A stretch of 44,109 bases of DNA from Candidatus Berkelbacteria bacterium (GTDB lineage: Bacteria > Patescibacteriota > UBA1384 > 2-12-FULL-50-11), in the NCBI GenBank assembly GCA_024654065.1, contig JANLIQ010000076.1, positions 1-44,109 of the forward strand, in the 5' to 3' direction. Within the stretch, counting starts at the first letter, position 1, and each line of letters begins with the position of its first letter. The position numbers were made by a program, and so were the translations under genes. A model generated the notes under the pieces. It was not told the DNA's origin, made no database searches, and was given only the letters and a program-made list of their open reading frames with translations. This document shows positions 15,655-36,111 of this stretch, piece after piece.

Positions 15655-18600
15655 CTAACTCAGCACCTCAAGCAGGTTATTATAGCCAGCGTTTTTAGCA
15701 AAGTTGTTCAGACTATAAAGGTTTTTTAATAATAACGTGATCCGTAGAGGTACTTTTAAGCCGACTTCTTTAATCTTCGTAACCAGATCAAATATTCCCT
15801 CTGGATTCTCAGCAATAGATACCGAGTTAACACCGTTTGATAATAAAGCCATAAGCTCTTCTTTGGAAAAAGTTGTATCATGATTCTCTGGCTGTCGAAG
15901 GAGATATTCGGCTAAAGCTCCCCTGACATTATCACCTGTTAAGCTCCCGAACAGTTGACGGTCATCATCTGATAGCTCTAAATAAAAATTTCGATCCAAG
16001 ATAGCCACCTTCTTATCTTCGGTTATTCTGAAGTTACCCGGGTGAACGTCGGAGTGTACGACACCGCTGACTATTTGATAGAGATAGTTGGAGGTAACTA
16101 GTCGAACGACTTCTTTCATGTCCTGTTCGGACAGTATTCCTTCTTGGTAATTTGTTGAATCGCCAACGCGAAACTGCGTCAGATTCTTTCCTTCTATAAA
16201 CTCCTCGACCTTGACGTACTTACCGCTATTCTCATCCAAACGAGGTACTTGAATCTGATAATCGCTTCCCTCAACCTTAAACCCGTTCCAATTTGCGTTG
16301 AATTGCCTTTCATTCTCGATAAAGCGCTCGTCATTAATATCCGACAAAAGCCATTCCTCGAGATCGGCAAGTAGATGTTCTTTAACCATCTTGTAATGAA
16401 GGTTGTCTGGAGACTTTTTTATAAGACGATCGGCAGTACGATGGGCAAGGTTCATTGACTCTCGAATTCGCTGTTCGGCATTCGGATTAAGAACTTTTAC
16501 TACCGTAGGGGTCTCGACGGACGGATTGTCATGGCGATAGACTGTTAAAAGCGAGCCGCCGCCGACTCGCGCCGAAAGCATACTGTCTTCCTGGAGTAGG
16601 TCCGGTCTTTCGCGTTGAATTGTACGGAAAGCTGATAATTTTGATTGGCCTTTAATTGAGTCGTACACGGCGGAGAATTTCTGCTCCACGGCCGGATCAA
16701 TATGGACATATTGTCCGAGTAGTTGCAAGAAGCGAACGCCGGGAGCGCCAAGCGTCGTAGCGACTTCGATCATTGCCTCGGACTCCTCCATCTTTTCAAA
16801 AATAACCCCCTCACGATAAGCCTCGGGCAGAGACCGTAGCACTTCCTGCTCCCCGAAGTTAATCGGTCGCTCCGAGTTCTCGGTGCCGATTTTTCCGTGG
16901 AATGACCAACGGTATGTTTTTTCTACAGCAGCGTCACCAAGTGTTTCATAGCCTGGAACCTCTACGGGCAGTTCTCGATCCAGTTCGTCTTCGAATCCAG
17001 AACCCTCCTGCTTGTACTCGTCGCGGATCGTCTCTTTGATAATCGAGCGGTAATCGGCTGACTCGGTCGGACGTTGAAGAATTGCGCGAGCCAGTAGAGG
17101 GCTTAGAAGAAAGTAGAGTTCGTCTTTATTGGCTGCACCCGCTAGTGACTCCATAATCTCATCCACCATTTGCACGCGTTCAGGCTTCAGTTTGACGTGA
17201 TTGTCGAATAAGCGATGAGCAACCTCCATAGTATTGTGTCGGGTATTTAGAACACCATCCTCGGGTTTGGTTAAAAGCTTTCGAACAATGCCGTGCCGTT
17301 CGACGATGTTGCTTCGATACAAACGCTCAAGCAGGTCGTCTATACGGACATATAATTGTCCTCTGTATGAATCGACATCCTGACGCAGAGCCGGTTTGTC
17401 TTCTATCCAACTATTAATTTTTTCAGGCGAGTCAAAATAGGTAAGCGTAGACGGATCAAGTCGTCCGGCGACATCTGATTCTTTCGTAATTACACCCCAC
17501 CAGTGTTCAATTAAAATACGGGCAAAACCCTGTTCATCCTCCCGAGTTTCGGTAAGCGCCAGAAGCGAGCCACTTGGATCTTTCAGTATCTTTTCCAGCA
17601 CCGCGTCTGCTCCGGTGAGCGTGCCGATTTCCTTCGAAGATTCTTGGTATGAATCCAGAATATATTTTTGAACTTCGATCATCTGCGCAGGAGTTTGAGC
17701 CAGATTCTCTGTCAGGTGGTCGATAAGTTCCGGCGAGTCTCCGACGCCGATCTTTTTATCCACAAAAAGAAGAGTCTTCAGCTCGCCATAAGTAACACCA
17801 TGAGCCAGCTCATTCGCGGCGAAAGCTTTAACCCGCCGTCGGATATCCGAGTCGATGAATAAGTCTGCCAGCAACATCTTTCTTTCGGGTAATAGGTTCG
17901 GGTTCCATAATTTTTGAATAACTTCCTGAATCGTTTCTAATAGTTTCTCGACATCATAAATGTCGGAATTAAGCCGCGGCCATGAGAATCTGGTGAATTG
18001 ATACCAGCGTTCCAATCCGCTCCACGCTTTTTCATTTTCGAGCTTGATTGCTTTTTCCATGAGGTTGGTGAAAAGATTAGGCCATTCATACAAACCCTTC
18101 ATCCATTGGCCACTGCCTTCAAAATAAGAGTCGCTCAAGCTCTTAAACAGCTCCAGGAGCGCCGCCTCCTTTTCTGAATCATCTTGCGAGTAAATACTGT
18201 CAAAAGCGCGGATGGTAGAGTTACAGATATCGCTCCAAAGTGAACTGTTAATATCGTAATGTCCCGCATCTAGCATTAATTCCTTATAAAGATTCAAAAC
18301 TCGCGCCTGCGACTCGGGCTGATTATTATCGATCTTCAGTCGATCATCTTCTTCTAGTGCAAGTAGAATGTTCAGGTAGGTAGAACTAGCATCCATCGGC
18401 GCCATTGAAGAGCAATTCTCTCGTAAGATAGTCGGGAATCTCTCCATATTAGTCGCGATATAGCTGATAATTTTTTCGTCCGCATCTCCGGACACTTCGT
18501 TGCTTCCACCGGTTGTTTTGTTGAACTGTTTCAGTAGCTGCGAGAACTCATCGGACTCTACTCTCTCTTTTGAAACGATCGAATCTAACACCCGGCGTAC

Positions 18601-20154
18601 TCCATCAATCCCCTTGGTCGAACCAGTACGCTCGAGAATTTCGATAATGGTTGCTTCATTACTGTCACTGATAGATGTTGCGACGTTGTTGATAAATGTT
18701 TGTTGATTAAAGAAGCGGTCGTAGCCGAGCTGGAGCATAAAGCGATCAACAGTAAGTGCAAGCTTTTGAAGCTCTAAGAGAAATATTCCGGGGTCAAACT
18801 CTCCGTTTGCTTCGTTCGTAAAAACGGCCGCAATTTTATCAAGATGGACAATGTAGTCCTCTAGCCGCGACTGGAAACCGTCGGAACAGAACAAGAAATC
18901 AATATCGCCTTTTTGCCATAACTCTGGATCGAAAATATTGCCGATGCTCTGCAATCGATTTTCGCTGGCATCATCTACTATCTCTAATGATAGAAAGTCA
19001 CCCTCTTTAGATTTGATATCAGCAACTTTCGAGTATTTTTGAAGAGGAATAGCTAGTCCTATCTCGAGCAAGGCGAATAACTGTGGTGCTTTTAATGATT
19101 CTGGAAAGTTATTCGCGTTTTGCAAGCTGTCGAAGATTTTTTGGCTGGCTTCTTGGTATGCGATAATTTCGAAGGAAGTAGTCGTTGTATTTTCCGCGCT
19201 TGTTCGTATCATCTGCTTCTGTTCGTCTCGGCCATTATTTCTAATATGTCGCTGAACTAGGCGATAAGTCTCTTCCCTCCATTTGGCAAGGGCTTCTGTC
19301 GCAAGAAGTAAAGATCGAGCGTCGCCCGTCCTTGTTAAGTTTGTCGCCAACTCCTCAACAGCCTGTCGCTCCATCTTCGCTAATGCCTCAAATTCCCGAT
19401 AGAAAGGTTTTTCCTCTAGTTGCGTTAACTCTTGGGTTGACTCCTTAAACTCGGATGAGAGTGGACTCGATTCTTGAGAGATATTTTCTATATCAAGAAA
19501 GTATTTCAGTGACAAAATATTCAAACGCCTGTCTTCGAGACTCCCATGTGCAACGGACCAGCCACCTTCTTCTGTCTGAAGCCGCTCAAAGAGTGAAGCT
19601 CCGGCTAACGGATTATAGCCTGATTTTTCTAGGAAATTCACAACGCTGACCAAGTCGGCTTCTACTTCGTTCATTCGGTCAAGTCCGGCGTGTGATTTGA
19701 CCCGATCTAGCGCTCTCTTGCTAAGCCCTTTATTCATCTGTCGAGCGGCATGCCCGGCTTTAACATGCTGACCTTCATGGGCAAGAAGAGCCGCGAGCTC
19801 GTCTTCGGTTGTCACCTTTTGAAGAATTCCAGGGTGGATGATAATGTGGCCATCAGGCAGAGCAAAAGCGTTGGCGATCGAATTTCCTCGACTGACCCTT
19901 ACCTTGTAAAGACTATCTTCCCCAAACAGTCGACTGCTGATCTCATCAATTTTAGCTTGAGTCGGACTATCTTTTGGGGCAAATCCGTAAACCGCTTCTA
20001 GTATTTTGACTTCTTGGTTGCTTGCCGCCGATAAATAGCGTTCGTCTACATCTTCGTGAGTTGTTCCTTGCTCGTTAAGCTCCTTCGGTTGCAACGTAGA
20101 CTCGTCCGAAGGAGGGACGGCATGTAATCCCAGGTCTCGAGACTCTATACTCAT
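15655..20154 (-). CDS. M48-type metalloprotease / ABC1 (UbiB-like) atypical kinase fusion, 1499 aa
   Basis: N-terminus: NAFALPDGHIIIHPGILQKVTTEDELAALLAHEGQHVKAGH...NEVEADLVSV...AHGSLEDRRLNI. C-terminus: TVVKVLNPNAEQRI...VEEFIEGKNLTQF...SGVVHSDVHPGNFRITEDKKVAILDRN. No obvious signal peptide. Confidence 0.85.
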   Translation of the reverse strand: MSIESRDLGLHAVPPSDESTLQPKELNEQGTTHEDVDERYLSAASNQEVKILEAVYGFAPKDSPTQAKIDEISSRLFGEDSLYKVRVSRGNSIANAFALPDGHIIIHPGILQKVTTEDELAALLAHEGQHVKAGHAARQMNKGLSKRALDRVKSHAGLDRMNEVEADLVSVVNFLEKSGYNPLAGASLFERLQTEEGGWSVAHGSLEDRRLNILSLKYFLDIENISQESSPLSSEFKESTQELTQLEEKPFYREFEALAKMERQAVEELATNLTRTGDARSLLLATEALAKWREETYRLVQRHIRNNGRDEQKQMIRTSAENTTTTSFEIIAYQEASQKIFDSLQNANNFPESLKAPQLFALLEIGLAIPLQKYSKVADIKSKEGDFLSLEIVDDASENRLQSIGNIFDPELWQKGDIDFLFCSDGFQSRLEDYIVHLDKIAAVFTNEANGEFDPGIFLLELQKLALTVDRFMLQLGYDRFFNQQTFINNVATSISDSNEATIIEILERTGSTKGIDGVRRVLDSIVSKERVESDEFSQLLKQFNKTTGGSNEVSGDADEKIISYIATNMERFPTILRENCSSMAPMDASSTYLNILLALEEDDRLKIDNNQPESQARVLNLYKELMLDAGHYDINSSLWSDICNSTIRAFDSIYSQDDSEKEAALLELFKSLSDSYFEGSGQWMKGLYEWPNLFTNLMEKAIKLENEKAWSGLERWYQFTRFSWPRLNSDIYDVEKLLETIQEVIQKLWNPNLLPERKMLLADLFIDSDIRRRVKAFAANELAHGVTYGELKTLLFVDKKIGVGDSPELIDHLTENLAQTPAQMIEVQKYILDSYQESSKEIGTLTGADAVLEKILKDPSGSLLALTETREDEQGFARILIEHWWGVITKESDVAGRLDPSTLTYFDSPEKINSWIEDKPALRQDVDSYRGQLYVRIDDLLERLYRSNIVERHGIVRKLLTKPEDGVLNTRHNTMEVAHRLFDNHVKLKPERVQMVDEIMESLAGAANKDELYFLLSPLLARAILQRPTESADYRSIIKETIRDEYKQEGSGFEDELDRELPVEVPGYETLGDAAVEKTYRWSFHGKIGTENSERPINFGEQEVLRSLPEAYREGVIFEKMEESEAMIEVATTLGAPGVRFLQLLGQYVHIDPAVEQKFSAVYDSIKGQSKLSAFRTIQRERPDLLQEDSMLSARVGGGSLLTVYRHDNPSVETPTVVKVLNPNAEQRIRESMNLAHRTADRLIKKSPDNLHYKMVKEHLLADLEEWLLSDINDERFIENERQFNANWNGFKVEGSDYQIQVPRLDENSGKYVKVEEFIEGKNLTQFRVGDSTNYQEGILSEQDMKEVVRLVTSNYLYQIVSGVVHSDVHPGNFRITEDKKVAILDRNFYLELSDDDRQLFGSLTGDNVRGALAEYLLRQPENHDTTFSKEELMALLSNGVNSVSIAENPEGIFDLVTKIKEVGLKVPLRITLLLKNLYSLNNFAKNAGYNNLLEVLS

Positions 20155-20225: not shown

Positions 20226-21188
20226 TTAGACAATTTCAAGCAAGCGGGTCTGAAGCTCTTTTAGGTTAGCTCCAGTCGTGGCACTGACCAGAACTGCTTG
20301 AGGATATTTTTTCTGCATAGCTTTTGTTTCGTCAAGCGAGAGTAGGTCGGACTTATTGATGACCACCAATCGCGGTTTATCAAGTAAGGTCGGATCGTAC
20401 TTCTTTAGTTCAGTTAAAACGGAGTTTTCTGATCGCTTGAGTTCCGGCGCAGTACCATCGAGTACATGCAGCAGTACCTTGACGCGCTGGGTATGCTTGA
20501 GGAATTCCGCACCCAGCCCTTTGCCTCGATGAGCGCCTTCGATTAAGCCTGGTAGATCAACCAAGGTTAAGGATTGCTCGCCAAGCGGTAAGACCCCTAG
20601 AACTGGTTCAGTGGTGGAGAAATTATAGGCACCGATTCGGACATTAGCTCCAGTTAGAGCCTTGATTATTGACGATTTGCCCGAGCTTGGCTCGCCGATC
20701 AGGGCTACATCGGCTACTAATTGTAGCTCCAATTTAACATTCAAAACCTGTCCGGGCGTGCCTTTGGTGGCTTCGAATGGATTCTGATTGGTCGACGACA
20801 CAAAATGGACATTACCTAGTCCGCCCTGGCCGCCTCGAGCAATGACGATACTCTCGTCGCTAGTGGTTAAGTCGGCAATGACTCGATTATCAACAAGATT
20901 GATTACCCGAGTTCCGGTAGGAATAAGTAGCTCTAAGTCAGCGCCGGCCGAACCGGTCTTTCTTTTATTGGCGCCGTTGTGGCCCCGTTCGGCCTTAAAT
21001 GTTTTTCGAAAACGAAACGAGGCTAAGGTATCTAGGTTGTGAGTACTGCGCAAAATAATACTACCGCCCCGACCACCGTCGCCACCCTCAGGACCGCCCC
21101 TAGCCACAAACTTCTCTCTTCGCCACGCAATCACTCCATCGCCACCGTCACCAGCTTTGAGCTCAATCTCAACTGAATCTACCAACAT
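20226..21188 (-). CDS. obgE: Obg-family GTPase
   Basis: Glycine-rich Obg fold (GGDGGRGGSIILRS) and GTPase motifs GEPSSGKSSIIKALTG, LVDLPGLIEGAHRGKGLG, NKSD. Confidence 0.97.
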   Translation of the reverse strand: MLVDSVEIELKAGDGGDGVIAWRREKFVARGGPEGGDGGRGGSIILRSTHNLDTLASFRFRKTFKAERGHNGANKRKTGSAGADLELLIPTGTRVINLVDNRVIADLTTSDESIVIARGGQGGLGNVHFVSSTNQNPFEATKGTPGQVLNVKLELQLVADVALIGEPSSGKSSIIKALTGANVRIGAYNFSTTEPVLGVLPLGEQSLTLVDLPGLIEGAHRGKGLGAEFLKHTQRVKVLLHVLDGTAPELKRSENSVLTELKKYDPTLLDKPRLVVINKSDLLSLDETKAMQKKYPQAVLVSATTGANLKELQTRLLEIV

Positions 21189-22552
21189 TAACTTGAGGTT
21201 CCGAAAACGATCTTCAACAATTCACGCAGGAGAACGGGCGGATTCTTAAGGATATTAGTGTCAGGGTTGATATTGAAGGTTTCGGTCAACAGACCGGGGT
21301 TTGGGAGTAAAATATTGCCTTTGGCTATAAAGATACCATTCACAGTTCCTTTTTTTATGTCGTTATTCCCAAAAATAATGTTGCCACCTAAGGAAATATA
21401 CGTTCCACAGTCAATTTTCAGATTGCCATTCGAAGGAGCCTCAAAGACAATGTCACCTTCTGTGATTAAGGCAAATCGCGTTCCAGAAGCACAAGAAACG
21501 CCACCAAGAAACTTGACTGGCATTGAACCTTCAGTCGCATGTCTTCTAACGGAAATTGTTCCTGCTCCAGAAAATGTAGTTCCCTTTTTTTCATCTTGAC
21601 CAATTTTGTAAAAACCATCAGGCGAATCAACAAAGACATTCCACAGCCTTCCCTCTGGAGGAGTCGAAAATGTATTCATATCTAGTTTATGTGGAATATA
21701 TTTATCGGCAGAGTTGAGGTTCCAATTTGCGTCATTATAGATAATAACCTCATTGGCATTATAAGATTTATTAGAATTAAATTGATTAATTAATGTAGAT
21801 CCAATTTTAGTCCAGTTAATGGTAGAAATACGATCTTTATCGTAATTAGAAATAGTTTCTCCATTCACGGATGTACCAACTAAATTTCCAACTGCTAGCG
21901 CGGATTCAGATTGAATGAAGCCGTCCAACGTTCCATTTAAAGCGGCTGTGTTACCACTAATAATAATTCCTTTATTAAGGGGGATTGTCTGGAACAGATA
22001 TGCAGATAAATTACGACTACCTCCTTTTACTGTAGTAATCGTCTTGAGACAAATATGAGTTGTGCCAACCCCGCATCCCGGTCCAGATAGGAAGGTAGTA
22101 GGATGAGATTGCCCTGATGGAGGATTCTCTAAATAGCTCTTCACCTTCTCGATATCTTCTTTACTAACGTCTGTATCAAATGTTAATCGGAAGTCTTTTA
22201 ACACAGGAAGTTCATCTTTCTCAATACCTTTAATGGATATCTTATAATATTCTCCATCAGCACCACCATTAATAATACTGGTGCTGATGGTATGGTTAGG
22301 AAAGCTACCCTGACCCTCAGTGAGGGTAAACTTATTATTATTGAAAGTGTAAGTAACCCCAGCTTTCGGAAAACGAAGTTTCGCTGGCATCATAATCAAT
22401 TTCGGGGGTAACTCAATGATAATCTGTGCTGTCCTTGGTGGTAGTCGTGAGAAAATAAACATGCTTCCCCCCGGTGGTGGTCCGTATGCTTTCGCCGACG
22501 GAATTAAGATAAAAATAAGTAGCAAGGAGAATAGAAACCGTTTAATCATCAT
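21188..22552 (-). CDS. Exported beta-rich protein (454 aa) with shared C-terminal domain
   Basis: N-terminal signal sequence MMIKRFLFSLLLIFILIPSAKAYG. C-terminus FSTPPEGRLW...GAGTISV...VNGIFIAKGNILLP...LLRELLKIVFGTSS resembles the 826-aa protein at 24974-27454. Confidence 0.8.
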   Translation of the reverse strand: MMIKRFLFSLLLIFILIPSAKAYGPPPGGSMFIFSRLPPRTAQIIIELPPKLIMMPAKLRFPKAGVTYTFNNNKFTLTEGQGSFPNHTISTSIINGGADGEYYKISIKGIEKDELPVLKDFRLTFDTDVSKEDIEKVKSYLENPPSGQSHPTTFLSGPGCGVGTTHICLKTITTVKGGSRNLSAYLFQTIPLNKGIIISGNTAALNGTLDGFIQSESALAVGNLVGTSVNGETISNYDKDRISTINWTKIGSTLINQFNSNKSYNANEVIIYNDANWNLNSADKYIPHKLDMNTFSTPPEGRLWNVFVDSPDGFYKIGQDEKKGTTFSGAGTISVRRHATEGSMPVKFLGGVSCASGTRFALITEGDIVFEAPSNGNLKIDCGTYISLGGNIIFGNNDIKKGTVNGIFIAKGNILLPNPGLLTETFNINPDTNILKNPPVLLRELLKIVFGTSS

Positions 22553-22904
22553 CGCATAACGTTGTTGTACAGTATCTTACTGTTCCCTGTATTCTAGGAA
22601 GTGCCACTAGCTTACCATTACTGTCTCTTTTCAAAGCTACTGCTCCGTAAGCATCGTACTTTGGAATATCTTCACCTTCTAGCTGATTAACTAAAAGAGG
22701 ATTTTCGGTATCGGCAGTTTGATCACTGACGTACCACTCCAAAGTAGTGCCATTGGAGGGCCCTCCTGTCATCGGACCCAGAAAACCTGTTCCACGAAAG
22801 TCGAAATATACAAATCCACCAATGACTATTGCAACCACAACGATAAGAGTTAAGTGGCGATGCATCTGATGTACGATTCTCTCTTCACGTTCTGCATGCT
22901 TCAT
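22542..22904 (-). CDS. Small single-TM protein (120 aa), partner of the exported protein
   Basis: RHLTLIVVVAIVIGGFVYFDF TM segment. Overlaps the start of the downstream gene. Confidence 0.75.
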   Translation of the reverse strand: MKHAEREERIVHQMHRHLTLIVVVAIVIGGFVYFDFRGTGFLGPMTGGPSNGTTLEWYVSDQTADTENPLLVNQLEGEDIPKYDAYGAVALKRDSNGKLVALPRIQGTVRYCTTTLCDDD

Positions 22905-22984
22905 CTATTACTAATGTAGCACTTAAGGCGCTTAGAAAAAACAATCCAAATCTTATCAGTCAACCTGAATGTATGATGATACTA

Positions 22985-23010
22985 ATAAAAAAGCCCCGAT
23001 AAATCGAGGC
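22985..23010 (-). terminator. Rho-independent terminator
   Basis: Minus strand GCCTCGATTTATCGGGGC-TTTTTTATT. Confidence 0.75.
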
Positions 23011-23029
23011 AAACCCAAAAAAAGTGGGC

Positions 23030-23767
23030 CTAGGGAATGTTGACGCCTGACAGTTTGTAATGAACTTTGGTCAGGAATGTGTTGGGACGACTGGGCCAGA
23101 TGTCTAGTGTGACGTCCTTTTCGATCGCATTCCTTAACTCATAAGACTGCGTGATGTAAAGGATTCGTTCCACCGGTGTACCGTTATTCACATTCGCCGG
23201 AGGCACGATCGTAACCGTGATTAAGATAACCTGATTCTGGTCGGCTCTCTTCACTACCGTTAGATTTACTCCAACCGGTTGACTGGAAGTTGAAAGCCGA
23301 ACAGTATTTGATGCGTCATCGATCTTAAGAACGACGTCGTAGTCAGCCGTAGTTGGCCAGTCAGAGGTAACAAGCGTAACTTCAGCCGTAACCTCCATCT
23401 CTACTCCGATTCCGATACTTAAGTCTCTTGTTTTTAATCTTCCCGCTCCATCATTAACCTGGGCAGTGAACTCGTAATAACGGAACTGATTGGGTACTCC
23501 TGAAATCTCACCGGTTTCAGAATTCAGGCTCAGACCATTCGGTAATAGTCCTTTGGCTATCGACCAACGGTACGGTAGCTTTCCGCCAGTAGCCCGTAGA
23601 AACTGGGAATAGTGTCGTCCTTCATTGCCCGACGGGAAGCTTGATGTGGTAATCGTCAGCTCGTTCGTCGCACCAGCACCACCACAACCAACCATGGAAG
23701 CTAGCAACAAAAGACCCACGACCATGAACATGCCTATCGCATAACAGGCGAGACTGTTTGTAATTTT
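23030..23767 (-). CDS. Probable lipoprotein with a putative-Ig (He_PIG-like) domain
   Basis: Start MKITNSLACYAIG preceded by GGAG; lipobox-like ASMVGCGG; ATGGKLPYRWSIAKGLLPNGLSLNSETGEISGVPNQFRYYEFTAQVNDG is a He_PIG signature. Confidence 0.75.
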   Translation of the reverse strand, partial: KITNSLACYAIGMFMVVGLLLLASMVGCGGAGATNELTITTSSFPSGNEGRHYSQFLRATGGKLPYRWSIAKGLLPNGLSLNSETGEISGVPNQFRYYEFTAQVNDGAGRLKTRDLSIGIGVEMEVTAEVTLVTSDWPTTADYDVVLKIDDASNTVRLSTSSQPVGVNLTVVKRADQNQVILITVTIVPPANVNNGTPVERILYITQSYELRNAIEKDVTLDIWPSRPNTFLTKVHYKLSGVNIP

Positions 23768-23833
23768 CATTATCGACTCCATGTGAAGATGCACCAAATC
23801 TCAAGGGCGTATCTGATGATCTAAGATGAGTGC

Positions 23834-23862
23834 AATGTAGCTCACCGACAATGAAGAGTCAA
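23834..23862 (-). promoter_or_regulatory. Promoter TTGACT-N17-TACATT for the lipoprotein gene
   Basis: Minus-strand hexamers at 23857-23862 and 23834-23839. Confidence 0.6.
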
Positions 23863-23890
23863 TGTGTATGTTTTCTGATTTGAAAATTTT

Positions 23891-23915
23891 AGAGTTTAGT
23901 TTAGCTCTAAACTCT
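23891..23915. repeat. Inverted repeat AGAGTTTAG-TTTAGCT-CTAAACTCT in a divergent promoter region
   Basis: Perfect 9-bp arms between two divergent promoters. Confidence 0.7.
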
Positions 23916-23940
23916 ATTCAGAAGAAATTTCCAGAATTGG

Positions 23941-23968
23941 TTGACAAATACAACGACTGAAGTACATT
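23941..23968 (+). promoter_or_regulatory. Promoter TTGACA-N16-TACATT, leaderless start predicted
   Basis: TTGACA 23941-23946; TACATT 23963-23968; ATG at 23975, 7 nt after the -10. Confidence 0.5.
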
Positions 23969-23974
23969 TGTTAT

Positions 23975-24664
23975 ATGAAGAACTATTTAACTAAATTTCT
24001 TAAAAAACTAAATCCTAATCAGAATGTTGTTATGGGACTAATTGGCTTGATTTTAGCATCTTTTGGAGCAATGTTATTAATGGGCTACACGCCCGCTAGT
24101 ATTACACACGGACAAACTGGAAGACCGTATACAAGTACGTGGAAAGCTCAAAAAGCCATTACTGTTTGTTGTTGGGGATCTAATAATGTCGAGGTTGGAA
24201 TAGGGATATCTGAGTGGCTAGTTGATGGAAAGATAGAAGGAGTCCCAGCATTTACAGAAACCTGGAAGACAAATGATCCTAGTGCTATTTTTGTTAAAAC
24301 TAACGCAGGCCATGGCGATAGGGTATTTGTTCCCTATCCTCCGAGTTCTAGCCATTTTGATGCTTCAAAGTGGTTACTCGGAGCGGTATTCACTGAAAGA
24401 GGATCAAGTGTTTTATACCTTAAAGAAAAGACAATAGATAGCTTACGAGCCGATTGGGAAATAACTAAGTGGAAAAGTAGGGCGGGTGGTAATGGAGGTG
24501 TGGCTTGTGACGGAGATGATATCGACTGTCGCTATGCGACAGGCGCATACGGCTGGACCGATAGTGAATCAATTGGTTCAGCCCGAAATTCATCCCAACC
24601 AACTGGTGGTGGTATATTCATGCCCCTTGAATGGACGGTGAATGGTACGCTTTTCCTCGAATAG
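23975..24664 (+). CDS. Membrane-anchored extracytoplasmic protein, unknown function (229 aa)
   Basis: N-terminal TM NVVMGLIGLILASFGAMLLMGY followed by a soluble domain containing Cys residues. Confidence 0.7.
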   Translation: MKNYLTKFLKKLNPNQNVVMGLIGLILASFGAMLLMGYTPASITHGQTGRPYTSTWKAQKAITVCCWGSNNVEVGIGISEWLVDGKIEGVPAFTETWKTNDPSAIFVKTNAGHGDRVFVPYPPSSSHFDASKWLLGAVFTERGSSVLYLKEKTIDSLRADWEITKWKSRAGGNGGVACDGDDIDCRYATGAYGWTDSESIGSARNSSQPTGGGIFMPLEWTVNGTLFLE

Positions 24665-24959
24665 CTTGTTTTTTCGTCAATTGACATCAAGTGTTTTTGC
24701 GCTTGGTTCTTTGATATTTTTAATTGGAATCTTTCAGTTCGCAAGTGGATTGCCAAAGGTAGTTAGTGAGCTAACACCTTCCAGTTTAACTGAAAGAAAT
24801 ATTGCAATTAAAGCGGCTAAGGAGTCTGGGCGTACAGACTATAGTTATACTACTCATTTCATTCCGGGTATCGGAATTATTGCCAATCCCCAGGATTACT
24901 TGAATCAGATGAATACCAAGGTAAGTGAAGGAGAAACCCAGAGTAGTGAGACAAAATAA
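24642..24959 (+). CDS. Small single-TM protein (105 aa)
   Basis: TM SSVFALGSLIFLIGIFQFASG. Overlaps the 3' end of the preceding ORF. Confidence 0.65.
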   Translation: MVRFSSNSLFFRQLTSSVFALGSLIFLIGIFQFASGLPKVVSELTPSSLTERNIAIKAAKESGRTDYSYTTHFIPGIGIIANPQDYLNQMNTKVSEGETQSSETK

Positions 24960-24973
24960 AAACGAGAAAAGGC

Positions 24974-27454
24974 TCAAGACGAGGTGGTAAAAACAATCCT
25001 CAGCAGTTCCTGGTAGAGTGCGGTTGGATTACTTGCAAATAAAGAATCGTATTCAACATTAAATGGACCAGTCAACGAAATTTTACTGGGTAATCTAATT
25101 GAATTCTTAGCAATAAAAATACCTTTAACTTGACCACTTGGAACATTTTTGAAAATTATTGTCCCATCATTACTACTTGAGCTCCGACTTAAAGCAGTAT
25201 AAGCACCGCAACCAACGAAATCAGTATTGATATTTATTTTCCCGTGAACGATAAAACCGAGACGAGTACTATCCTCACAAAGAAGTCTTCCGTTGATATT
25301 AAGATCCCCATTTATAACAATCGTACCAGCTCCATGGAAAGTAACCGAACCTAGAGTTAAGCTATTATTTTCGATTTTCCAAATTTTACCCTCAGGAGGG
25401 GAAGAAAAAGTACTACTATTACTATTAGTTGGAATATTTGTATCTGAGTTTAAAAACCAATTAGCTCCATAATAACTTCCGCCACTTACCCCAGTACCAA
25501 GACCTTGACCCTTTGCATAAAGAGCACCCAATTTGAGACTAATTCGGTTCCAATCAAATGTTTCTGATTGACCATCAATATAATCATCGAGTTGATTAGT
25601 CGAACCCTGAACATTTACCGAACCTCCTACTGCTATTGCCTTAGAGTCAAGCGTGAAACCAGCTACTTGTTCGGGTGCAGCCACATTGCCTTCGACATTT
25701 ATTTGGCTAACATCGATCGGTATTCTTTGTAATAAAGTTTGGTTAATTGGGTTTCCTGGACGCTCGGTGGGATTATTTAGAGTTAGTCTAGATCGCAAAC
25801 ATAGGTTAGTCGCCACATCTTCTTGAGCTGGAACACAATCTGAGTCTCCAAGAAAAGTATGATCAAGAGATTGTGGTTGGTTTCTAAGAGATCCGACAAT
25901 ATTATTGAAAACAGCAAACGTCACCCGTTCTTTATATGTTAACCTCACGCCCCAATTCTGAATTCTGGGATCATCTAAATTAATTCCGTCACCCTTAATA
26001 ATATCTTTTATGGTTAGCCGGAAGGTATTATCAACTAAGTTGTTATTGACCCGATCCACACTTATTTTTGGTGAACAAAGACTGTTTGTCATAAAACAAA
26101 GGCTGGTTTCGTCGAATGTATAAAGCTGATCACCAAACCGTAATCGATCAGGGGTATAAATCTGGCTCGTAGGTAAGTTGATCTGCAAACTAGCCGGATC
26201 TGGCAATATCCCACATTTGTCTCCGGGAAATGATTTAAGCGAACTAATTGGGGTTCTCCAAACTTTAGCAACATTTGTCGAACCTTGATTAGTACTGCCC
26301 GTTCCTCGACCCTCGGCAATAAAGATATTGTCTTTATGAATGGCTATATCAGTAACCGAGTAGCCTCTAAACTCCGTATCCCTCCGATCGATAGAACGAT
26401 AGAAGTATGAATCGGAGCCTACCGGCAAAACATGTGAAGGACAAGCCCGATAAAAATCTCCCTCTTGCGTCCCGATCATTAGCTGACGATCAGTCAATGC
26501 CCGCAGGGATGTGACAGCACCCTTACTGAAACCATAGCTGTTGCCGGGGCAATGTTGTGAGCTTCCCTCCAGGAAGCAAGTCGAGTTCAATTTTACATAA
26601 GTAACCCCATCCCAAGTTTGGTAAAGAGTATCAGATACGCCATTTGCCCTTTTTGATAAACCGACGTAATTAATGCCAAATAATTCGGCGGACGAGCCGA
26701 TACATTCTGTCATTGTTCGAGGAAGACCATCTGGGAAATATGATTTCCAGCTATTGGCATTGCCATTGTCAACAGATCTGATAAGTCGACAGCCAACGGT
26801 TCCTTGGCCTGAATTCAAAAATGATGCAAACAGAGTCTGTCCGATTGAGAAAATGTGTTGAATAGCATAATAGCCGCTGCTACCTAGACCATCAGTAACT
26901 ACCTGTTCCCAATTGGGGTTTCGTGGATCTTCAGTATTTTTCAGCCGCCAGATTTGAGCTCCATCGTAATTACGGGTTCCGGCATAGAGATAGTCACCGA
27001 AAACTGCAAGTGACGTAATCTCTTTATTTCCAGGATTAGGCCAGGGGGGAGACGGTAATTTAGTGTTGAACCATGTATTTAAATTCGGGTCAAACGCAAA
27101 CACATATGACTTGCCCGCCCCTATGGCTCGTGATCCAGCGTAAACATACTTCGTACCATCGGTATTAGGAAACTCAACCAAAGAAGTAGTTTTATCACCA
27201 CTAACACCACCTAAATTGCCTGAAGGGAAAAATAGGTTGGTCGTTTGACGAACCTGGGCACCGTTGGTATTTTCCGTTCCAGCCATTAAGGTATCTCCGT
27301 ACGAAAGAAGTTTCGTAGCACTAATATTTTCTGATTGTCCAAAACCAAAATCACTAGCACTACTCCAATTGTCAGCTGCTTGAGCTGTCATCGGCCTACT
27401 AAAGACGCTAATAACTATTAAGACTGCCAATAAGACTTTACTTACTTTCTTCAT
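24974..27454 (-). CDS. Exported protein (826 aa): beta-propeller-like N-terminus plus shared C-terminal domain
   Basis: Signal peptide MKKVSKVLLAVLIVISVFSRPMTAQAAD; repeats YGDTLMAGTENTNGAQV / FGDYLYAGTRNYDGAQIW; C-terminus FSSPPEGKIW...GAGTIVI...VKGIFIAKNSIRLP...LYQELLRIVFTTSS. Confidence 0.8.
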   Translation of the reverse strand: MKKVSKVLLAVLIVISVFSRPMTAQAADNWSSASDFGFGQSENISATKLLSYGDTLMAGTENTNGAQVRQTTNLFFPSGNLGGVSGDKTTSLVEFPNTDGTKYVYAGSRAIGAGKSYVFAFDPNLNTWFNTKLPSPPWPNPGNKEITSLAVFGDYLYAGTRNYDGAQIWRLKNTEDPRNPNWEQVVTDGLGSSGYYAIQHIFSIGQTLFASFLNSGQGTVGCRLIRSVDNGNANSWKSYFPDGLPRTMTECIGSSAELFGINYVGLSKRANGVSDTLYQTWDGVTYVKLNSTCFLEGSSQHCPGNSYGFSKGAVTSLRALTDRQLMIGTQEGDFYRACPSHVLPVGSDSYFYRSIDRRDTEFRGYSVTDIAIHKDNIFIAEGRGTGSTNQGSTNVAKVWRTPISSLKSFPGDKCGILPDPASLQINLPTSQIYTPDRLRFGDQLYTFDETSLCFMTNSLCSPKISVDRVNNNLVDNTFRLTIKDIIKGDGINLDDPRIQNWGVRLTYKERVTFAVFNNIVGSLRNQPQSLDHTFLGDSDCVPAQEDVATNLCLRSRLTLNNPTERPGNPINQTLLQRIPIDVSQINVEGNVAAPEQVAGFTLDSKAIAVGGSVNVQGSTNQLDDYIDGQSETFDWNRISLKLGALYAKGQGLGTGVSGGSYYGANWFLNSDTNIPTNSNSSTFSSPPEGKIWKIENNSLTLGSVTFHGAGTIVINGDLNINGRLLCEDSTRLGFIVHGKININTDFVGCGAYTALSRSSSSNDGTIIFKNVPSGQVKGIFIAKNSIRLPSKISLTGPFNVEYDSLFASNPTALYQELLRIVFTTSS

Positions 27455-27825
27455 TTATAATCTATCTCAAACTGAAATCTTGGTATTTTAATATTTGTAT
27501 TATTCTTCTCTAGTTTTGTCGCTCCGGTGTTAATATCATCAGCGTACTCTGGTCTAGTGGTATCGGTTATGGTATTTGGTAAAGCAATTTTTTGTTGTCC
27601 GACTTTAGAATGATCACTCGATTTTAAGCGGATTGTTGTCGGACCAACATTGCCAGTTGTGCCTGAGTCCGGAGATAGATAACCTTTCCAATCAACAACG
27701 ATGCCTGAGATTAAAATTATCAAAATCGCTCCAAGTCCAATAATGGCAAACGAATGGCGATGGAGAAACTTCTTTAATAAACTCATCGTAAACCAAAAAT
27801 CATGCCTAACGGTTTTCCAAAACAA
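27451..27825 (-). CDS. Small single-TM protein (up to 124 aa), partner of the 826-aa protein
   Basis: HRHSFAIIGLGAILIILISGIVVDWKGYL. Overlaps the next gene by 4 nt. The start could be the internal ATG at 27786. Confidence 0.7.
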   Translation of the reverse strand: MFWKTVRHDFWFTMSLLKKFLHRHSFAIIGLGAILIILISGIVVDWKGYLSPDSGTTGNVGPTTIRLKSSDHSKVGQQKIALPNTITDTTRPEYADDINTGATKLEKNNTNIKIPRFQFEIDYK

Positions 27826-29383
27826 CGCTTACCGCCGAAGGCAGGTAACTTACTAGACTAATTCCTTCGGGGAGGGTGAAATCAGATAATTTGATCGTAA
27901 TGGAATATGTCCCAGCCGACTGATAAGGCGAAAGGCTTAGTTTAAGTTTGGCTGTACCGTCTGCCAGATTACTTAAAATTGTTGACGGTCCAGAAACTAA
28001 GACTGAAACTGAGCTTGGCGTAAGAGAAGTTACTTTTAGAAGTGAGCTTAATCCATCGTACTCAATTTCGGGAACGATGGTTTTTACCGTACTAGTAAGT
28101 TCTAAGTCGATCTTGGCACTTATTTTGCTAGTTCCGTCCGCAATGGTAACACCTGAGGGTAAAGATAAAGTAATTGAAACAGTAGTATTACTACTCAGAG
28201 CAGCAACGGGAATTGGTTCTGTTGGAATCTCAGTTAAATTAGCTAGTTGATCAGCTGAGCCCGTAACGGTCACTACTGATGGATCAACGATAATAGATTT
28301 GATCCAAAAACCACTTGCGGGTTGACCTGATGTAATTGGACGAATGCCAACGGTTTTCAAATTTCCAGCTTTTACCAAATTAATTGTGGCCTCAACTTCA
28401 GTTGGATTAAAACTGACCGAACCAATAACTTCACCAGCAGAATTAAGGGCAACTAAACTAAACTTCTGAATTATTTTTTGGATTTCTCCATTTAATTTAA
28501 CTTGAATAAATGCTTGAGATAAATTAGTTAAAACAGATTTTGGTCCCCTTGCTTCAACCTTCAATGGCTCATAGGTTGGTTCATCGGGTACTAAATCATT
28601 TCCAGCTTTACCAGAAAATTTAGCTATTACGGTCACAGTTTTTTTAATAACAGGTTCAACAGTAACTACAACATTACTGGGGTTAATCCTAACTATTGTC
28701 ACATCTTGAATTTTAGAAGTTAGTTTTACCGGCAGGTCGTAAGTTCCTTCTCCACGAGCGGCTACATCGACAGTAGCGGAAAAGTTATCTGCCGTTAAAG
28801 ACTTCCACTTATTATTTTGGGCACTAACAATTATTTTTGTGTTTACTTGGCTACCAAAGCTTGCTGCCATTCCTTCAGGAAGATTGACAGCCACCAATGG
28901 AACACCACTTGGAAGTTCGGCAGTTTTGGCTCCGATACCACTAACTAATCCCACAATTAAAAAAGAACCTATTAAAGAGAAAAAACCAATAAGAAATGAA
29001 TTCAAATATGGTGGTTCAGAATTGGTTAGGCTTGCCTTGTTACTAAATAATCCCAACCATCGATCATCTAAATAAAGTGGTAAACCTATAACTAGTAATA
29101 CTAAACCGAATTGGGCTAATACGTGGAGACCGGGAAGAGTAATGTAGGCACTAATAACGAGTAACGAAAGAGCTAAACCAATTAAGGAAAAATAGTTTAT
29201 ATTCTTCCTAGAATTAAAAGTTCGCACAATCAAGTACAAGATTACCGCTACCAGTAAAATATCAAAAGAAAAATATAACCAACGTGTGGTGTCACCAACA
29301 CCAAACTGCAACCATCCCTGCCAGATATCTTTCAGCGTCTGTATATCCCCTCCTAGATTTAAGTATCGAGTATCAAGTGTCAA
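27806..29383 (-). CDS. CdaA-like membrane anchor fused to YbbR/CdaR-like repeats, no DAC domain; start uncertain
   Basis: N-terminus RWLYFSFDILLVAVILYLIVRTFNSRKNINYFSLIGLALSLLVISAYITLPGLHVLAQFGLVLLVIGLPLYLDD resembles the TM region of CdaA. The rest contains repeated YbbR-like segments (e.g. VTVEPVIKKTVTVIAKFSGKAGNDLVPDEPTYEPLKVEARGPKSVLTNLSQAFIQVKL). The tracked start is TTG inside tandem repeats; the true start probably lies after AGGAGGGG. Confidence 0.7.
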   Translation of the reverse strand: MTLDTRYLNLGGDIQTLKDIWQGWLQFGVGDTTRWLYFSFDILLVAVILYLIVRTFNSRKNINYFSLIGLALSLLVISAYITLPGLHVLAQFGLVLLVIGLPLYLDDRWLGLFSNKASLTNSEPPYLNSFLIGFFSLIGSFLIVGLVSGIGAKTAELPSGVPLVAVNLPEGMAASFGSQVNTKIIVSAQNNKWKSLTADNFSATVDVAARGEGTYDLPVKLTSKIQDVTIVRINPSNVVVTVEPVIKKTVTVIAKFSGKAGNDLVPDEPTYEPLKVEARGPKSVLTNLSQAFIQVKLNGEIQKIIQKFSLVALNSAGEVIGSVSFNPTEVEATINLVKAGNLKTVGIRPITSGQPASGFWIKSIIVDPSVVTVTGSADQLANLTEIPTEPIPVAALSSNTTVSITLSLPSGVTIADGTSKISAKIDLELTSTVKTIVPEIEYDGLSSLLKVTSLTPSSVSVLVSGPSTILSNLADGTAKLKLSLSPYQSAGTYSITIKLSDFTLPEGISLVSYLPSAVSVVLENR

Positions 29384-29457: not shown

Positions 29458-29543
29458 ACAAATGGCCTTCGGGCTTTAGTCTGCGCAAGCAGACTAGGTA
29501 AATGCAAGGGAGCGGTCAGAGTAAATCTTTGGTCGCTTTTTTG
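29458..29543 (+). ncRNA. Putative ~85-nt sRNA whose 3' end is antisense to the toxin gene 3' end
   Basis: Promoter at 29423-29451; GGCC-TTCG-GGCT hairpin; TAGTCTGC-GCAA-GCAGACTA perfect hairpin 29477-29496; terminator AGCGGTCAGAG-TAAAT-CTTTGGTCGCT-TTTTTT 29511-29543. Confidence 0.55.
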
Positions 29544-29908
29544 ATTCTTATAATCGAACTTTCCTTGGCAAGAGTGATTTTGTCTGTAAGGCGCTTAGAA
29601 CTAATGAGTCGTAACTGGGAAATCATAGCTGCACGGGTCTCTCCGTCGTTAGCTAAACACTCAACATAAAATCGGTTATCTTTCATTTTGGTCGAAAGAG
29701 GCACAGCCCAGAAAAGGAATTGATTAAACTTTCTTAGTATAATAACCGGCCGGCTAAAGGACTTGCCCTTACCATCTTCCTCGTGCCCAACATTAGCTCC
29801 GAGACGACACCACCAAATCTCTCCATCGCGAAAATATGATAATTGAACTGATTTCTCCTCTATACTCCCCTTCGCTTCGTGCCATTTCTTGTAATCCCGT
29901 TTCGTCAT
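29516..29908 (-). CDS. PemK/MazF-family type II toxin-like protein
   Basis: GEIWWCRLGANVGHEEDGKGKSFSRPVIILRKFNQFLFWAVPLSTKMKDNRFYV...AMISQLRLISSKRLTDKI. Confidence 0.9.
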   Translation of the reverse strand: MTKRDYKKWHEAKGSIEEKSVQLSYFRDGEIWWCRLGANVGHEEDGKGKSFSRPVIILRKFNQFLFWAVPLSTKMKDNRFYVECLANDGETRAAMISQLRLISSKRLTDKITLAKESSIIRIKKATKDLL

Positions 29909-30673: not shown

Positions 30674-32377
30674 CTACTCAACACTAATTTTGATAAAGGC
30701 TAGGACATCGCCTTTTTCTAATTCAGGAGCGCCTTCCATACCAACTCCACATTGTTCACCAACTTCGGCTTGATCAACAGCAACTTTACCAATCTTTAAA
30801 CCAGTCATTTTAGCCTTCCCGATTTCTTCTTTATCGCGGTAAGCAACAACTTCATCGCTCATCGTCACGATGCCTTGAGTAACATCTCCACCAGCAATAG
30901 CAATACCTTTTTTCTGAGAAAAGACTTGCAAAATTTTTAGTCGTCCTGTCTCTTCACGCACATAAACTGGAGTAGCAATTTTCTTTAATTTTTCCGTTAA
31001 AAGATCTAGAGCTTCATAGATAACCCAAAACTCACGTAATTCCACTTCTTCTTTTTCGGCTAAGTCCAACATGCGTTTTGTTGGAGTCGAACGAAATGCA
31101 ATGACTAAGGCCTTCGCCGGTTTAGCTAAATTAATATCATTTTCGTTAATCGCTCCAATGCCACTTGAAAGTATCTCAACTGTCGCATCTTTGATTTTAA
31201 GTTTAGAAATCGAATCCTCAAGTGCCGCTAAAGAACCCCCAACATCAGTTTTTAAAACTATTCTTAAGTGATTATCGTTTTCGTCTGTTACCGCTTTGGA
31301 TGTAGTTGCCGTTTGAACCACCATTGTTTTAGCGACTTTTTCATTAGGTGCTGTTATCAGACGATCACCAAATATTGGTACATTTTTTAAACCCATAATT
31401 ACAACCGGAGTGGCTGGTCCAGCAGTGACAATATTACGCCCTAGATCATTTTCTAATACTTTAATCCGACCATATGTCCCACCCGTAACAACGACCTGAC
31501 CAGCTCTGAGTGTTCCGTTATAGATAAGGACGGTAGCAATTGGACCACGTTGTTTATCCATATTGGCTTCAATAACAATGCCTTCGCTTGGAGCCTCAGG
31601 ATCAGCTTTAAGCTCAAGTAAATCGGTTGTTAAAATTACCATTTCAAGTAACTGATCCACACCCTTACCAGTCTTAGCAGAAACGGGGACGACTACAGTT
31701 TTACCACCCCATTCCTCGGGGGCTAGATCATTTTCGACTAATTGTTGTTTGACTCTTTCGATATTTGCCCCAGGTAAATCAAATTTATTTATTGCAACTA
31801 TAACCGGTACATTAGCGCTACGAGCATGGTGGAGAGCCTCAAGAGTCTGTGGTTTGACACCATCATCAGCTGCAACTACTAAAATAACTAAATCCGTAAT
31901 ACTTGCTCCGTGAGCCCTCAGAGCCGAAAATGCTTCGTGACCAGGCGTATCCACAAAAGTAATTTTTCGTTTACTTCCTTCTGAGGTTTTAAACTCAATC
32001 TGGTAAGCACTGATATGTTGGGTGATCCCACCAGATTCACCACCAGCAATGTTAGATTGTCGGATAAAGTCTAATAGAGAAGTTTTGCCATGATCAACAT
32101 GACCCATTATCGTTACGATCGGTGGTCGGGCAATTGAAGATTTTGTATCCGTACTTTTAGTAAAAACATTTGTTGCTACAACTTCTTGTTCGGCTGTCCA
32201 CCCAAATTCCTCGACCAATAGTGCTGCAGTATCATAGTCAATCGACTGGTTAATTGTTGCCATAACACCGTTTTTTATCAACTTACCAATCACGTCAGTA
32301 GCACCAACCTTCATTTTATCTGCCAACGCTCTGACGGAAATAGATTCCGGTAATTGGAGAACCTTTTGTTCGGCCAT
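30674..32377 (-). CDS. infB: Translation initiation factor IF-2 (short form, 567 aa)
   Basis: [48 protein letters not shown]. Confidence 0.98.
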   Translation of the reverse strand: MAEQKVLQLPESISVRALADKMKVGATDVIGKLIKNGVMATINQSIDYDTAALLVEEFGWTAEQEVVATNVFTKSTDTKSSIARPPIVTIMGHVDHGKTSLLDFIRQSNIAGGESGGITQHISAYQIEFKTSEGSKRKITFVDTPGHEAFSALRAHGASITDLVILVVAADDGVKPQTLEALHHARSANVPVIVAINKFDLPGANIERVKQQLVENDLAPEEWGGKTVVVPVSAKTGKGVDQLLEMVILTTDLLELKADPEAPSEGIVIEANMDKQRGPIATVLIYNGTLRAGQVVVTGGTYGRIKVLENDLGRNIVTAGPATPVVIMGLKNVPIFGDRLITAPNEKVAKTMVVQTATTSKAVTDENDNHLRIVLKTDVGGSLAALEDSISKLKIKDATVEILSSGIGAINENDINLAKPAKALVIAFRSTPTKRMLDLAEKEEVELREFWVIYEALDLLTEKLKKIATPVYVREETGRLKILQVFSQKKGIAIAGGDVTQGIVTMSDEVVAYRDKEEIGKAKMTGLKIGKVAVDQAEVGEQCGVGMEGAPELEKGDVLAFIKISVE

Positions 32378-35300: not shown

Positions 35301-36111
35301 CCATGTGATGGGCCGGAACCCAGGTCTGGGTTTTGTTTTGATATATGAGTCGATAACCTTTTCTCTTGAGGCGGTCTTCTTCTGTAGAGAGCTTTTGGTA
35401 CAATGGCATTAGCGATTGGCCGGTGGTAAGATCTCGAGCTTCCTTATAGGAGCCGTCCCTCAACATAAATCGATGGTTTGGCGTACACCTTATCCTCGCA
35501 CCGTTATCAAGCCGAACTTCAATTAACTCGGCTTGAGTTTGGGTTAAGCGGGGCTTCAGGATTTCTGCGATCGAGATTAAGCCAGAATTATTAACTGTGA
35601 AAGTATAGTTTTTCTTACCGTCTTGATACTCTCTGACTAAATTCTCAAAACTAAGATTTCGGCCGTCTGCCAGTAATACCTCCGTGTCTTTGGTGAAACA
35701 ACCAAAATTACCTTGACCGTTAACAAGTGGCATTCGTAAACTCCACCATTGAGCCATTCTTACCATGGCTTCATAAATTGATGAGTCGCCATGAGGGTGG
35801 TAAAGACCCATAACTTGACCGACAATTTTTGCCGATTTTTGGTGCTTGGAATTGGCCGACAAGCCCATCTCACGCATAACATAAAGGATACGACGTTGAA
35901 CAGGTTTTAATCCGTCTCTAACATCAGGCAGGGCTCGAGCAACAATAACGCTCATGGCGTAATCTAAATAAGACTCGCTCATCTCGTCGTGAATCTGTCG
36001 TGGTTTAATTACACCGAAGTCAGTTTTTTCAGGCATCACTTTAACACTCTTATTGAGAGTATTGGGCTCGCTATCAGCTTGTCGATCTTTTTTTTCTACT
36101 TCTTCAGCCAT
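32377..36111 (-). CDS. gyrA: DNA gyrase subunit A precursor containing an intein
   Basis: GyrA N-extein ...[28 protein letters not shown], a 391-aa intein, then [17 protein letters not shown].... Confidence 0.98.
34528..35700 (-). other. Intein (391 aa) with an HNH-type homing endonuclease, within gyrA
   Basis: Begins [18 protein letters not shown] (block A); [20 protein letters not shown] (block B); HNH core [28 protein letters not shown]; ends [22 protein letters not shown] followed by +1 Ser. Confidence 0.95.

What the first reader, a model, noticed from the sequence alone, without database searches (positions are those of the whole stretch)
21188..27825. Duplicated two-gene surface module: small TM protein plus large exported protein with a shared C-terminal domain
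Two gene pairs on the same strand have the same layout: a ~120-aa single-TM protein overlapping a signal-peptide protein (22904-21188 and 27825-24974). The large proteins differ N-terminally (one is propeller-like), but their last ~200 aa share a pattern: F(S)xPPEGxxW ... GAGTI.V ... G.I.....G.GxYxxL ... G.VxGIFIAKxxIxLP ... F ... P..L..ELL(K/R)IVFxTSS-stop. The conserved extreme C-terminus suggests a sorting, assembly or pilus/secretion signal. Between the pairs lie a He_PIG lipoprotein and two more membrane-anchored proteins. Together these could be an undescribed cell-surface or attachment system.
Basis: partly seen in the sequence, partly recalled or inferred. Interest (0 to 1): 0.8.

Follow-up and report, generated by a model that had tools for sequence, protein, structure and literature searches.

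The report
Displaced type IV pilus surface proteins
Two pairs of neighbouring genes in an ultra-small Berkelbacteria genome are real duplicates; each makes a membrane-anchored partner plus a large exported protein, and the large protein belongs to a family whose relatives sit just upstream of the genes that build type IV pili, so it is probably an undescribed pilus-linked surface or attachment protein.

Summary
The 826-aa and 454-aa proteins are paralogous over ~409 aa (E 2e-36), more than the ~200 aa claimed, and the small single-TM proteins are paralogous too (E 1e-6). The window is Candidatus Berkelbacteria (Patescibacteria/CPR). All 8 genomes held of its family carry the large protein in one place, ybbR–[small TM–large]–obg–rpoB. 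The pair is duplicated in three, fused into one ORF in one, and one copy of a second is fused. An HMM built only from this family hits 15 other genomes of the class; in 14 the hit lies on the same strand, 5' of pilB, and in 12 within 5 kb, at the head of a PilN–PilO–PilB–PilT type IV pilus (T4P) operon. The family's own PilT-type operons lack that gene. The two opposite-strand genes between the pairs also have T4P-operon or pilin-linked relatives. Best explanation: Sec-exported T4P-associated adhesin-like proteins, each held by a TM partner, moved out of the pilus operon and duplicated. The conserved C-terminus closes a DUF7305-like solenoid domain and resembles no known sorting signal. The T4P link rests on genomics only; tip position and host binding are inference. 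New variant of a known kind; interest about 0.5.

The parts
27451..27825 (-). small A: single-TM protein (124 aa; likely ATG start at ~27786) with a short C-terminal extracytoplasmic domain ending in a (P)R-[IF]-Q-x-x-[IL]-x-Y motif
   Evidence: ORF; family alignment A9; paralogue of small B E 1e-6; HMM hits limited to the Berkelbacteria family at E<1e-10
24974..27454 (-). large A: 826 aa exported protein; Sec signal peptide (MKKVSKVLLAVLIVISVFSRPMTAQA|AD), N-terminal propeller-like repeats, C-terminal shared module
   Evidence: ORF; repeats 49.5 vs 30.3±3.5 for shuffles; weak propeller fold matches; shared module
26210..27376 (-). propeller-like N-terminal region of large A (aa ~27-415), about six I..L..F...LYAGT......AQIWR-type repeats
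   Evidence: self-repeat test; Foldseek matches to several beta-propellers at prob 0.94-0.98 but E only ~0.03-0.1, and low AF2 confidence in most of this stretch; similar region in G006 large A, z=7
24977..26203 (-). shared C-terminal module of large A (aa 418-826), with four invariant cysteines (C540, C552, C726, C749)
   Evidence: alignments A1 and A2
25055..25405 (-). beta-solenoid core of large A (aa ~684-800: SSPPEGKIW...GAGTIVINGDL...GIFIAKNSIRLP)
   Evidence: AF2 pLDDT mostly ~75-91 for aa 690-790; homologous to the T4P-operon head proteins; DUF7305 and other solenoid Pfam hits in the relatives
24642..24959 (+). 105-aa single-TM protein (SSLTERNxAIxxAxxxGxxxYxFxTxFIPGIG), second gene of the + strand pair
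   Evidence: A6; homologue in the T4P operon of G038: BLASTP E 2e-4, hhalign E 1.8e-6, own-family HMM E 0.046 at G038:C12:89818
23975..24664 (+). 229-aa single-TM protein ending ...PLEWTVNGTL, first gene of the + strand pair
   Evidence: A5; G038 T4P-operon counterpart BLASTP E 0.002, hhalign not supportive; beside a lone pilin gene in G003, G004, G005, G007
23030..23797 (-). He_PIG (Ig-like) exported protein, probable lipoprotein; not part of the conserved module
   Evidence: Pfam He_PIG 2.6e-11; absent from this place in G001 and G006
22542..22904 (-). small B: single-TM protein, 120 aa
21188..22552 (-). large B: 454 aa exported protein (signal peptide ...LIPSAKA|Y), shared module only, no propeller
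   Evidence: conserved orthologues in G001 and G006 (tree)
27806..29383 (-). conserved upstream neighbour: three-TM (CdaA_N-like) plus four YbbR repeats
   Evidence: Pfam YbbR 3.9e-27; same neighbour in the family loci
20226..21188 (-). conserved downstream neighbour obg (Obg GTPase)
   Evidence: same neighbour in all 8 family genomes

Best explanation
The module encodes accessory surface proteins of the cell's type IV pilus (T4P), moved out of the pilus operon to the ybbR-obg interval in the ancestor of this Berkelbacteria family and later duplicated. Shown: paralogy, conserved pairing, the Berkelbacteria identity, homology of the C-terminal solenoid domain to exported proteins encoded directly 5' of pilN-pilO-pilB-pilT in most class relatives that have it, its absence from the family's own PilT-type pilus operons, and T4P- or pilin-linked relatives of the two + strand genes. 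Inferred: each large protein is Sec-exported, folds with two disulfides, and presents an N-terminal ligand-binding part (a beta-propeller in A) on a C-terminal beta-solenoid, as a PilY1-like non-pilin pilus priming or tip adhesin; the small TM partner (fused in cis in some relatives) holds it at the membrane or pilus base. Least certain: tip position and binding of a host cell.
For: HMM A1, built from the family only, hits 15 non-family genomes of the class; 14/15 on the same contig and strand and 5' of a long PilB frame, 12/15 within 5 kb. The operons are T4P: PilO 3.5e-9, T2SSE/MshEN, plus PilT, PilC and class III pilins. Domain HMM A10 finds 74/241 phylum genomes; of 39 further genomes checked, 19 have PilB 2.5-10 kb downstream on the same strand and none has it within 12 kb upstream. 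Pairwise large A vs the G014 pilus-operon protein E 3e-10, z=19. Family PilT-type operons start at pilN with no such gene. + strand genes: G038 pilus operon has the order 197 aa-95 aa-large-PilN-PilO-PilB with matches E 0.002 and 2e-4; in four other family genomes the same pair lies beside a lone pilin gene. Fusions of small TM with large (G007; G006 A, z=19 to the G002 small protein) indicate joint function. A propeller plus this C-terminal domain recurs in the G017 pilus-operon protein. DUF7305 hits in 8/16 domain members.
Against: In this family the genes are no longer in a pilus operon; their constant neighbour is ybbR. The closest non-family relative, G021, is also unlinked to pilB. The large proteins have ordinary Sec signals, not prepilin leaders, so they are not pilins. 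AF2 models are poor outside the solenoid (mean pLDDT 52 and 55), so domain docking and the propeller are weakly supported. The PilT-type pilus operon was not found in the window's own 91%-complete MAG; it is seen in the same-genus genome G001, and the window's genome does hold a PilM/N/O-type T4P operon. About half of the phylum-level hits are not pilB-linked.
Confidence: 0.55

Rival explanations
1. Envelope module of the ybbR locus: the small and large proteins work with the CdaA_N-YbbR membrane protein in cell-wall or envelope maintenance; the pilus-operon relatives share only a common beta-solenoid fold or distant ancestry.
For: ybbR is the constant upstream neighbour in the family, and the ybbR and small-TM genes overlap or abut, suggesting co-transcription. 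All 8 family genomes keep the position.
Against: The sequence link to pilus-operon proteins covers the whole C-terminal domain (E 3e-10 pairwise; HMM to 1.7e-23) and 14/15 of those lie 5' of pilB. The accompanying + strand genes are pilin- or pilus-linked elsewhere. No diadenylate cyclase exists in these genomes, so the usual CdaA-CdaR pathway is not intact.
Confidence: 0.2
2. Free-standing adhesins anchored by the TM partner, no longer connected to pili: the C-terminal domain was recruited from the pilus accessory protein and now serves a separate surface fibre or attachment layer (closest to the first reader's idea).
For: Displacement from the pilus operon, duplication with N-terminal diversification, TM-partner fusions, and G005 carrying the TM-partner domain fused to a GH71-like protein fit a membrane-anchored surface display module.
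Against: The same + strand gene pair accompanies a pilin gene in other family members and T4P-type ATPases are present throughout the family, so loss of the pilus connection is not required.
Confidence: 0.2
3. Sorting-signal proteins: the conserved C-terminal ~20 aa is a recognition tag for a dedicated secretion or anchoring enzyme.
For: The C-terminus (NPTxLxxELLxIVF) is well conserved within the family.
Against: It is continuous with a conserved solenoid domain, has no TM-plus-basic tail or LPXTG, and its counterpart in relatives is a different motif (PPPGF) with a variable tail.
Confidence: 0.05

Closest known systems
Exported proteins at the head of Patescibacteria T4P operons (no name found; here called the PPPGF/DUF7305-like family)
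   Same: Homologous C-terminal solenoid domain, signal peptide or N-terminal TM, large variable N-terminal part, sometimes with propeller repeats
   Different: In the window they sit at ybbR-obg instead of 5' of pilN, are duplicated, have a dedicated small TM partner, and end in NPTxLxxELLxIVF instead of PPPGF
Saccharibacteria PilX1/PilX2 of T4P (Nanosynbacter lyticus TM7x; PMC12206443)
   Same: T4P-associated exported proteins without PilD-type leaders; PilX2 carries a beta-propeller and is needed for normal host binding in that paper
   Different: PilX2 is described as a lollipop pilin with a C-terminal RCC1 propeller; here the propeller is N-terminal, the solenoid C-terminal, and no pilin domain was seen. 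No sequence comparison was made here
PilY1/PilC pilus tip proteins of Proteobacteria
   Same: Sec-exported, non-pilin, propeller-containing, encoded with T4P genes (general knowledge)
   Different: No Pfam PilY1/PilC match; domain order differs; in PilY1 the propeller is C-terminal
DUF7305 (PF23981)
   Same: 8 of 16 C-terminal-domain members hit it, best E 3.6e-7
   Different: The window proteins themselves do not hit it
Bactofilin, FapA, MinC_C and ice-binding-like adhesive solenoids
   Same: Weak profile and fold similarity of the C-terminal domain
   Different: Scattered weak hits, each in one member; no family assignment

Membership tests
T4P-operon-head exported solenoid family of Patescibacteria | C-terminal domain PEGxxW ... 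GxGTIxVxGxLxI ... LGFIVxG ... G.x(V/I)A ... YD | tested here: met
   A1 HMM hits 15 class genomes, E 1.7e-23 to 8.9e-7; alignment A10
T4P-operon-head exported solenoid family of Patescibacteria | Gene lies 5' of pilN-pilO-pilB on the same strand | tested here: not met
   Window family genes lie at ybbR-obg; met by 14/15 class relatives outside the family
Type IV pilin or minor pilin | Class III prepilin leader (G|FTLIE-like) and N-terminal lollipop helix | tested here: not met
   Sequences start with ordinary Sec signals ending AQA|A and AKA|Y; no pilin Pfam hit
PilY1/PilC | Pfam PilY1/PilC profile match | tested here: not met
   No hit at E<=1
PilY1/PilC | Location at the pilus tip and role in pilus priming or adhesion | not testable with these tools
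   Needs experiment
PilX2-like propeller adhesin of Saccharibacteria | Propeller domain on a T4P-associated protein without PilD leader | tested here: inconclusive
   Propeller-like repeats in large A and weak propeller fold matches, but AF2 confidence in that region is mostly low; large B lacks it
DUF7305 (PF23981) | Profile match to PF23981 | tested here: inconclusive
   Half of the homologous domain members match (best 3.6e-7); window members do not
Sortase or PEP-CTERM substrates | LPXTG-like or PEP motif with C-terminal TM helix and basic tail | tested here: not met
   C-termini NPTALYQELLRIVFTTSS and NPPVLLRELLKIVFGTSS carry none of these

The most novel reading that the evidence does not exclude
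Patescibacteria possess an undescribed class of T4P accessory: exported proteins that share one C-terminal solenoid domain and carry interchangeable N-terminal heads (propeller, glycine-rich repeats, frames of thousands of residues), with TM partners in Berkelbacteria, serving as the pilus-borne receptor that recognises the host cell; Berkelbacteria have detached and duplicated it to present two different heads.
Probability: 0.3. Interest if true: 0.75.

Novelty: new variant of a known kind. Interest (0 to 1): 0.5.

Why it matters
How uncultivated CPR bacteria recognise and hold their hosts is an open question; T4P are the leading candidates and their adhesive parts are poorly conserved in sequence, so mostly unannotated. 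A domain that marks an exported protein family at the head of CPR T4P operons in many lineages gives a searchable handle on candidate pilus adhesins, and the Berkelbacteria locus shows that such proteins can leave the operon and diversify where annotation by neighbourhood would miss them.

Tried and rejected
Structure prediction of large A with 8 homologues: only the C-terminal solenoid is confident; Foldseek vs PDB gave no E<=0.001 match, weak propeller and ice-binding-protein solenoid matches only. The G007 small-large fusion was modelled to see how the parts dock: N-terminal part unresolved and fold search uninformative. A mixed alignment of fusion, small and large rows misplaced the small proteins and was not used (A3). 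Solved-structure sequence search: nothing. PHROGs and NCBIfam: nothing useful, so no sign of a phage origin. The genome-contig scan found 5 loci, which gave the taxonomy. Profile comparison of the 229-aa family with the G014/G038 pilus-operon proteins was not significant, so that link rests on one short BLASTP match (E 0.002) plus gene order and is the weakest part. dN/dS between genera was saturated at synonymous sites and could not be used. The C-terminal sorting-tag idea was considered and rejected. Independence of the small-large fusions was considered: the tree puts G006 A with G002 and G007 (support 87/87), so they may be one event.

Full report
WHAT IS THERE. The two gene pairs exist at the stated coordinates. 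Large A (27454-24974, 826 aa) and large B (22552-21188, 454 aa) both begin with ordinary Sec signal peptides (…MTAQA|AD and …PSAKA|YG by eye). Their similarity is not limited to the last ~200 aa: BLASTP aligns A aa 418-826 with B aa 39-454 at E 2e-36, and both halves of that stretch beat shuffled sequence by 20 and 35 standard deviations. The small TM proteins are also paralogous (E 1e-6; z=10.7).

WHOSE IT IS. The window is contig C72 of a 770-kb, 77-contig MAG, 91% complete. Family relatives fetched with titles are Candidatus Berkelbacteria or 'Patescibacteria group bacterium', so this is a CPR genome.

CONSERVATION IN THE FAMILY. All eight family genomes held (G000-G007) carry the large protein in one syntenic slot, between ybbR and obg-rpoB. 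It is single in G002, G003, G004, G005 and G007 and duplicated in G000, G001 and G006. In G007 the small TM protein and the large protein are one 577-aa ORF; in G006 the copy next to obg is a 931-aa ORF that begins with the small-protein domain (z=19 against the G002 small protein), continues with a propeller-like part and ends in the shared module. G005 has no small gene at this place, but carries the small-protein domain elsewhere, fused to a GH71-like exported protein. The tree groups B copies (G000b, G001b, G006b, 93/94), A copies (G000a, G001a, 100/99) and G006a with G002/G007 (87/87), so duplication within the family is likely and the two small-large fusions need not be independent. Across 11 members four cysteines, the PPEGxxW motif, G-x-G-T and several glycines are invariant or nearly so.

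WHAT IT IS RELATED TO. A profile made only from family members (A1) was searched against all 55 genomes held of the class. Besides the 8 family genomes it found 15 more. In 14 of these 15 the hit lies on the same contig and strand as, and 5' of, a long PilB (T2SSE) frame, and in 12 it is within 5 kb (positions). The operons read large exported protein - PilN-like - PilO-like - PilB - PilT - PilC - class III pilins - PilD; PilO and PilB were confirmed with Pfam, PilN only weakly. A chance gene would fall there in roughly 1% of cases (my estimate from genome size). The exception is G021, the best-scoring outsider, whose gene lies between pnp and a DHH gene. A profile of the C-terminal domain (A10) found 74 of 241 phylum genomes; of 39 further genomes checked for T2SSE, 19 have PilB 2.5-10 kb downstream on the same strand and none within 12 kb upstream. 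The family's own PilT-type operons were read in seven genomes: none has this gene before pilN. The simplest history is that the operon-head gene moved to ybbR-obg.

THE GENES BETWEEN THE PAIRS. The two + strand genes (229 aa at 23975-24664; 105 aa at 24642-24959) lie inside the duplicated locus in G000, G001 and G006. In G003, G004, G005 and G007 the same two families lie together elsewhere, in each case beside a lone divergent prepilin-type gene. In the T4P operon of G038 the order is 197 aa - 95 aa - large - PilN - PilO - PilB; the 95-aa protein matches the 105-aa family (BLASTP E 2e-4; hhalign E 1.8e-6; family HMM E 0.046 at that place), and the 197-aa protein matches the 229-aa one weakly (E 0.002 over 34 aa; profile comparison not significant). 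These genes thus also point to pili. The He_PIG gene (23030-23797) has no counterpart at this place in G001 or G006 and is not counted as part of the module.

ARCHITECTURE. In the AF2 model of large A the stretch aa 690-790 is confident (pLDDT mostly 75-91) and all-beta; the N-terminal 420 aa are mostly not. Foldseek gives weak solenoid matches (ice-binding proteins) and weak propeller matches, none significant by E-value. Relatives' C-terminal domains hit DUF7305 (8 of 16, best 3.6e-7) and, singly, FapA, an ice-binding-like adhesive domain and MinC_C, all solenoid-type (for fold type, general knowledge). The N-terminus of large A contains about six repeats of a LYAGT…AQIWR type (49.5 vs 30.3±3.5 for shuffles). 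A propeller-like repeat region combined with this C-terminal domain recurs in the 3477-aa pilus-operon protein of G017. The conserved extreme C-terminus closes this domain; in pilus-operon relatives the aligned place reads YDxxxxxxPPPGF plus a variable tail, so it does not look like a sorting tag.

MECHANISM (INFERENCE). Sec exports the large protein; two disulfides and the solenoid form a stiff base; the N-terminal part, a propeller in A and short or absent in B, is the likely binding surface; the small TM protein holds the large protein at the membrane. By analogy with PilY1, and with the Saccharibacteria protein PilX2 (a propeller-bearing T4P protein without a PilD leader whose deletion lowers host binding, PMC12206443), it may prime or tip the pilus. 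In Southlakia, most T4P genes are essential for epibiotic life (PMC10633639). CPR T4P are common, with no PilQ found (PMC6744442). No paper found in the held library describes the operon-head protein family.

LIMITS. The T4P link is genomic; no experiment or confident complex model supports tip location. The MAG itself lacks the PilT-type operon in its assembly, though it holds a PilM/N/O-type pilus operon and the same-genus genome has the PilT type. A ybbR-linked envelope role is the main rival.

Noticed in passing
window 27806-29383 (-) and G001-G007: A CdaA_N-like three-TM segment is joined directly to four YbbR repeats, and no DAC (diadenylate cyclase) domain is found in any of the 8 family genomes: a CdaA/CdaR-like membrane protein kept without its cyclase.
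   Followed up: partly
window 15655-20154 (-): A 1499-aa protein carries an M48 peptidase domain (1.5e-14, HExxH present) at the N-terminus and an ABC1/UbiB-type atypical kinase domain (1.2e-14) at the C-terminus, an unusual pairing.
   Followed up: partly
window 32377-36111 (-): gyrA is interrupted by an intein (Intein_splicing 8.1e-21, aa 147-528).
   Followed up: partly
window 29516-29908 (-): PemK/MazF-like toxin gene (4.1e-11); no antitoxin identified beside it.
   Followed up: no
G140:C2 around 316084-316560 (-): A 25,343-aa open frame carries the same C-terminal domain and lies 9.4 kb 5' of pilB on the same strand: a giant candidate pilus-linked surface protein in a ~0.8-Mb genome.
   Followed up: no
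L105 5537-8604 (G003): Three copies of the 229-aa family and one 105-aa gene in tandem next to a lone pilin gene: local expansion of this TM protein family.
   Followed up: partly
L109 4654-6570 (G005): The small-TM-protein domain is fused to a GH71-like exported protein (2.8e-7, below Pfam's cut-off), suggesting a reusable membrane-anchoring module.
   Followed up: partly
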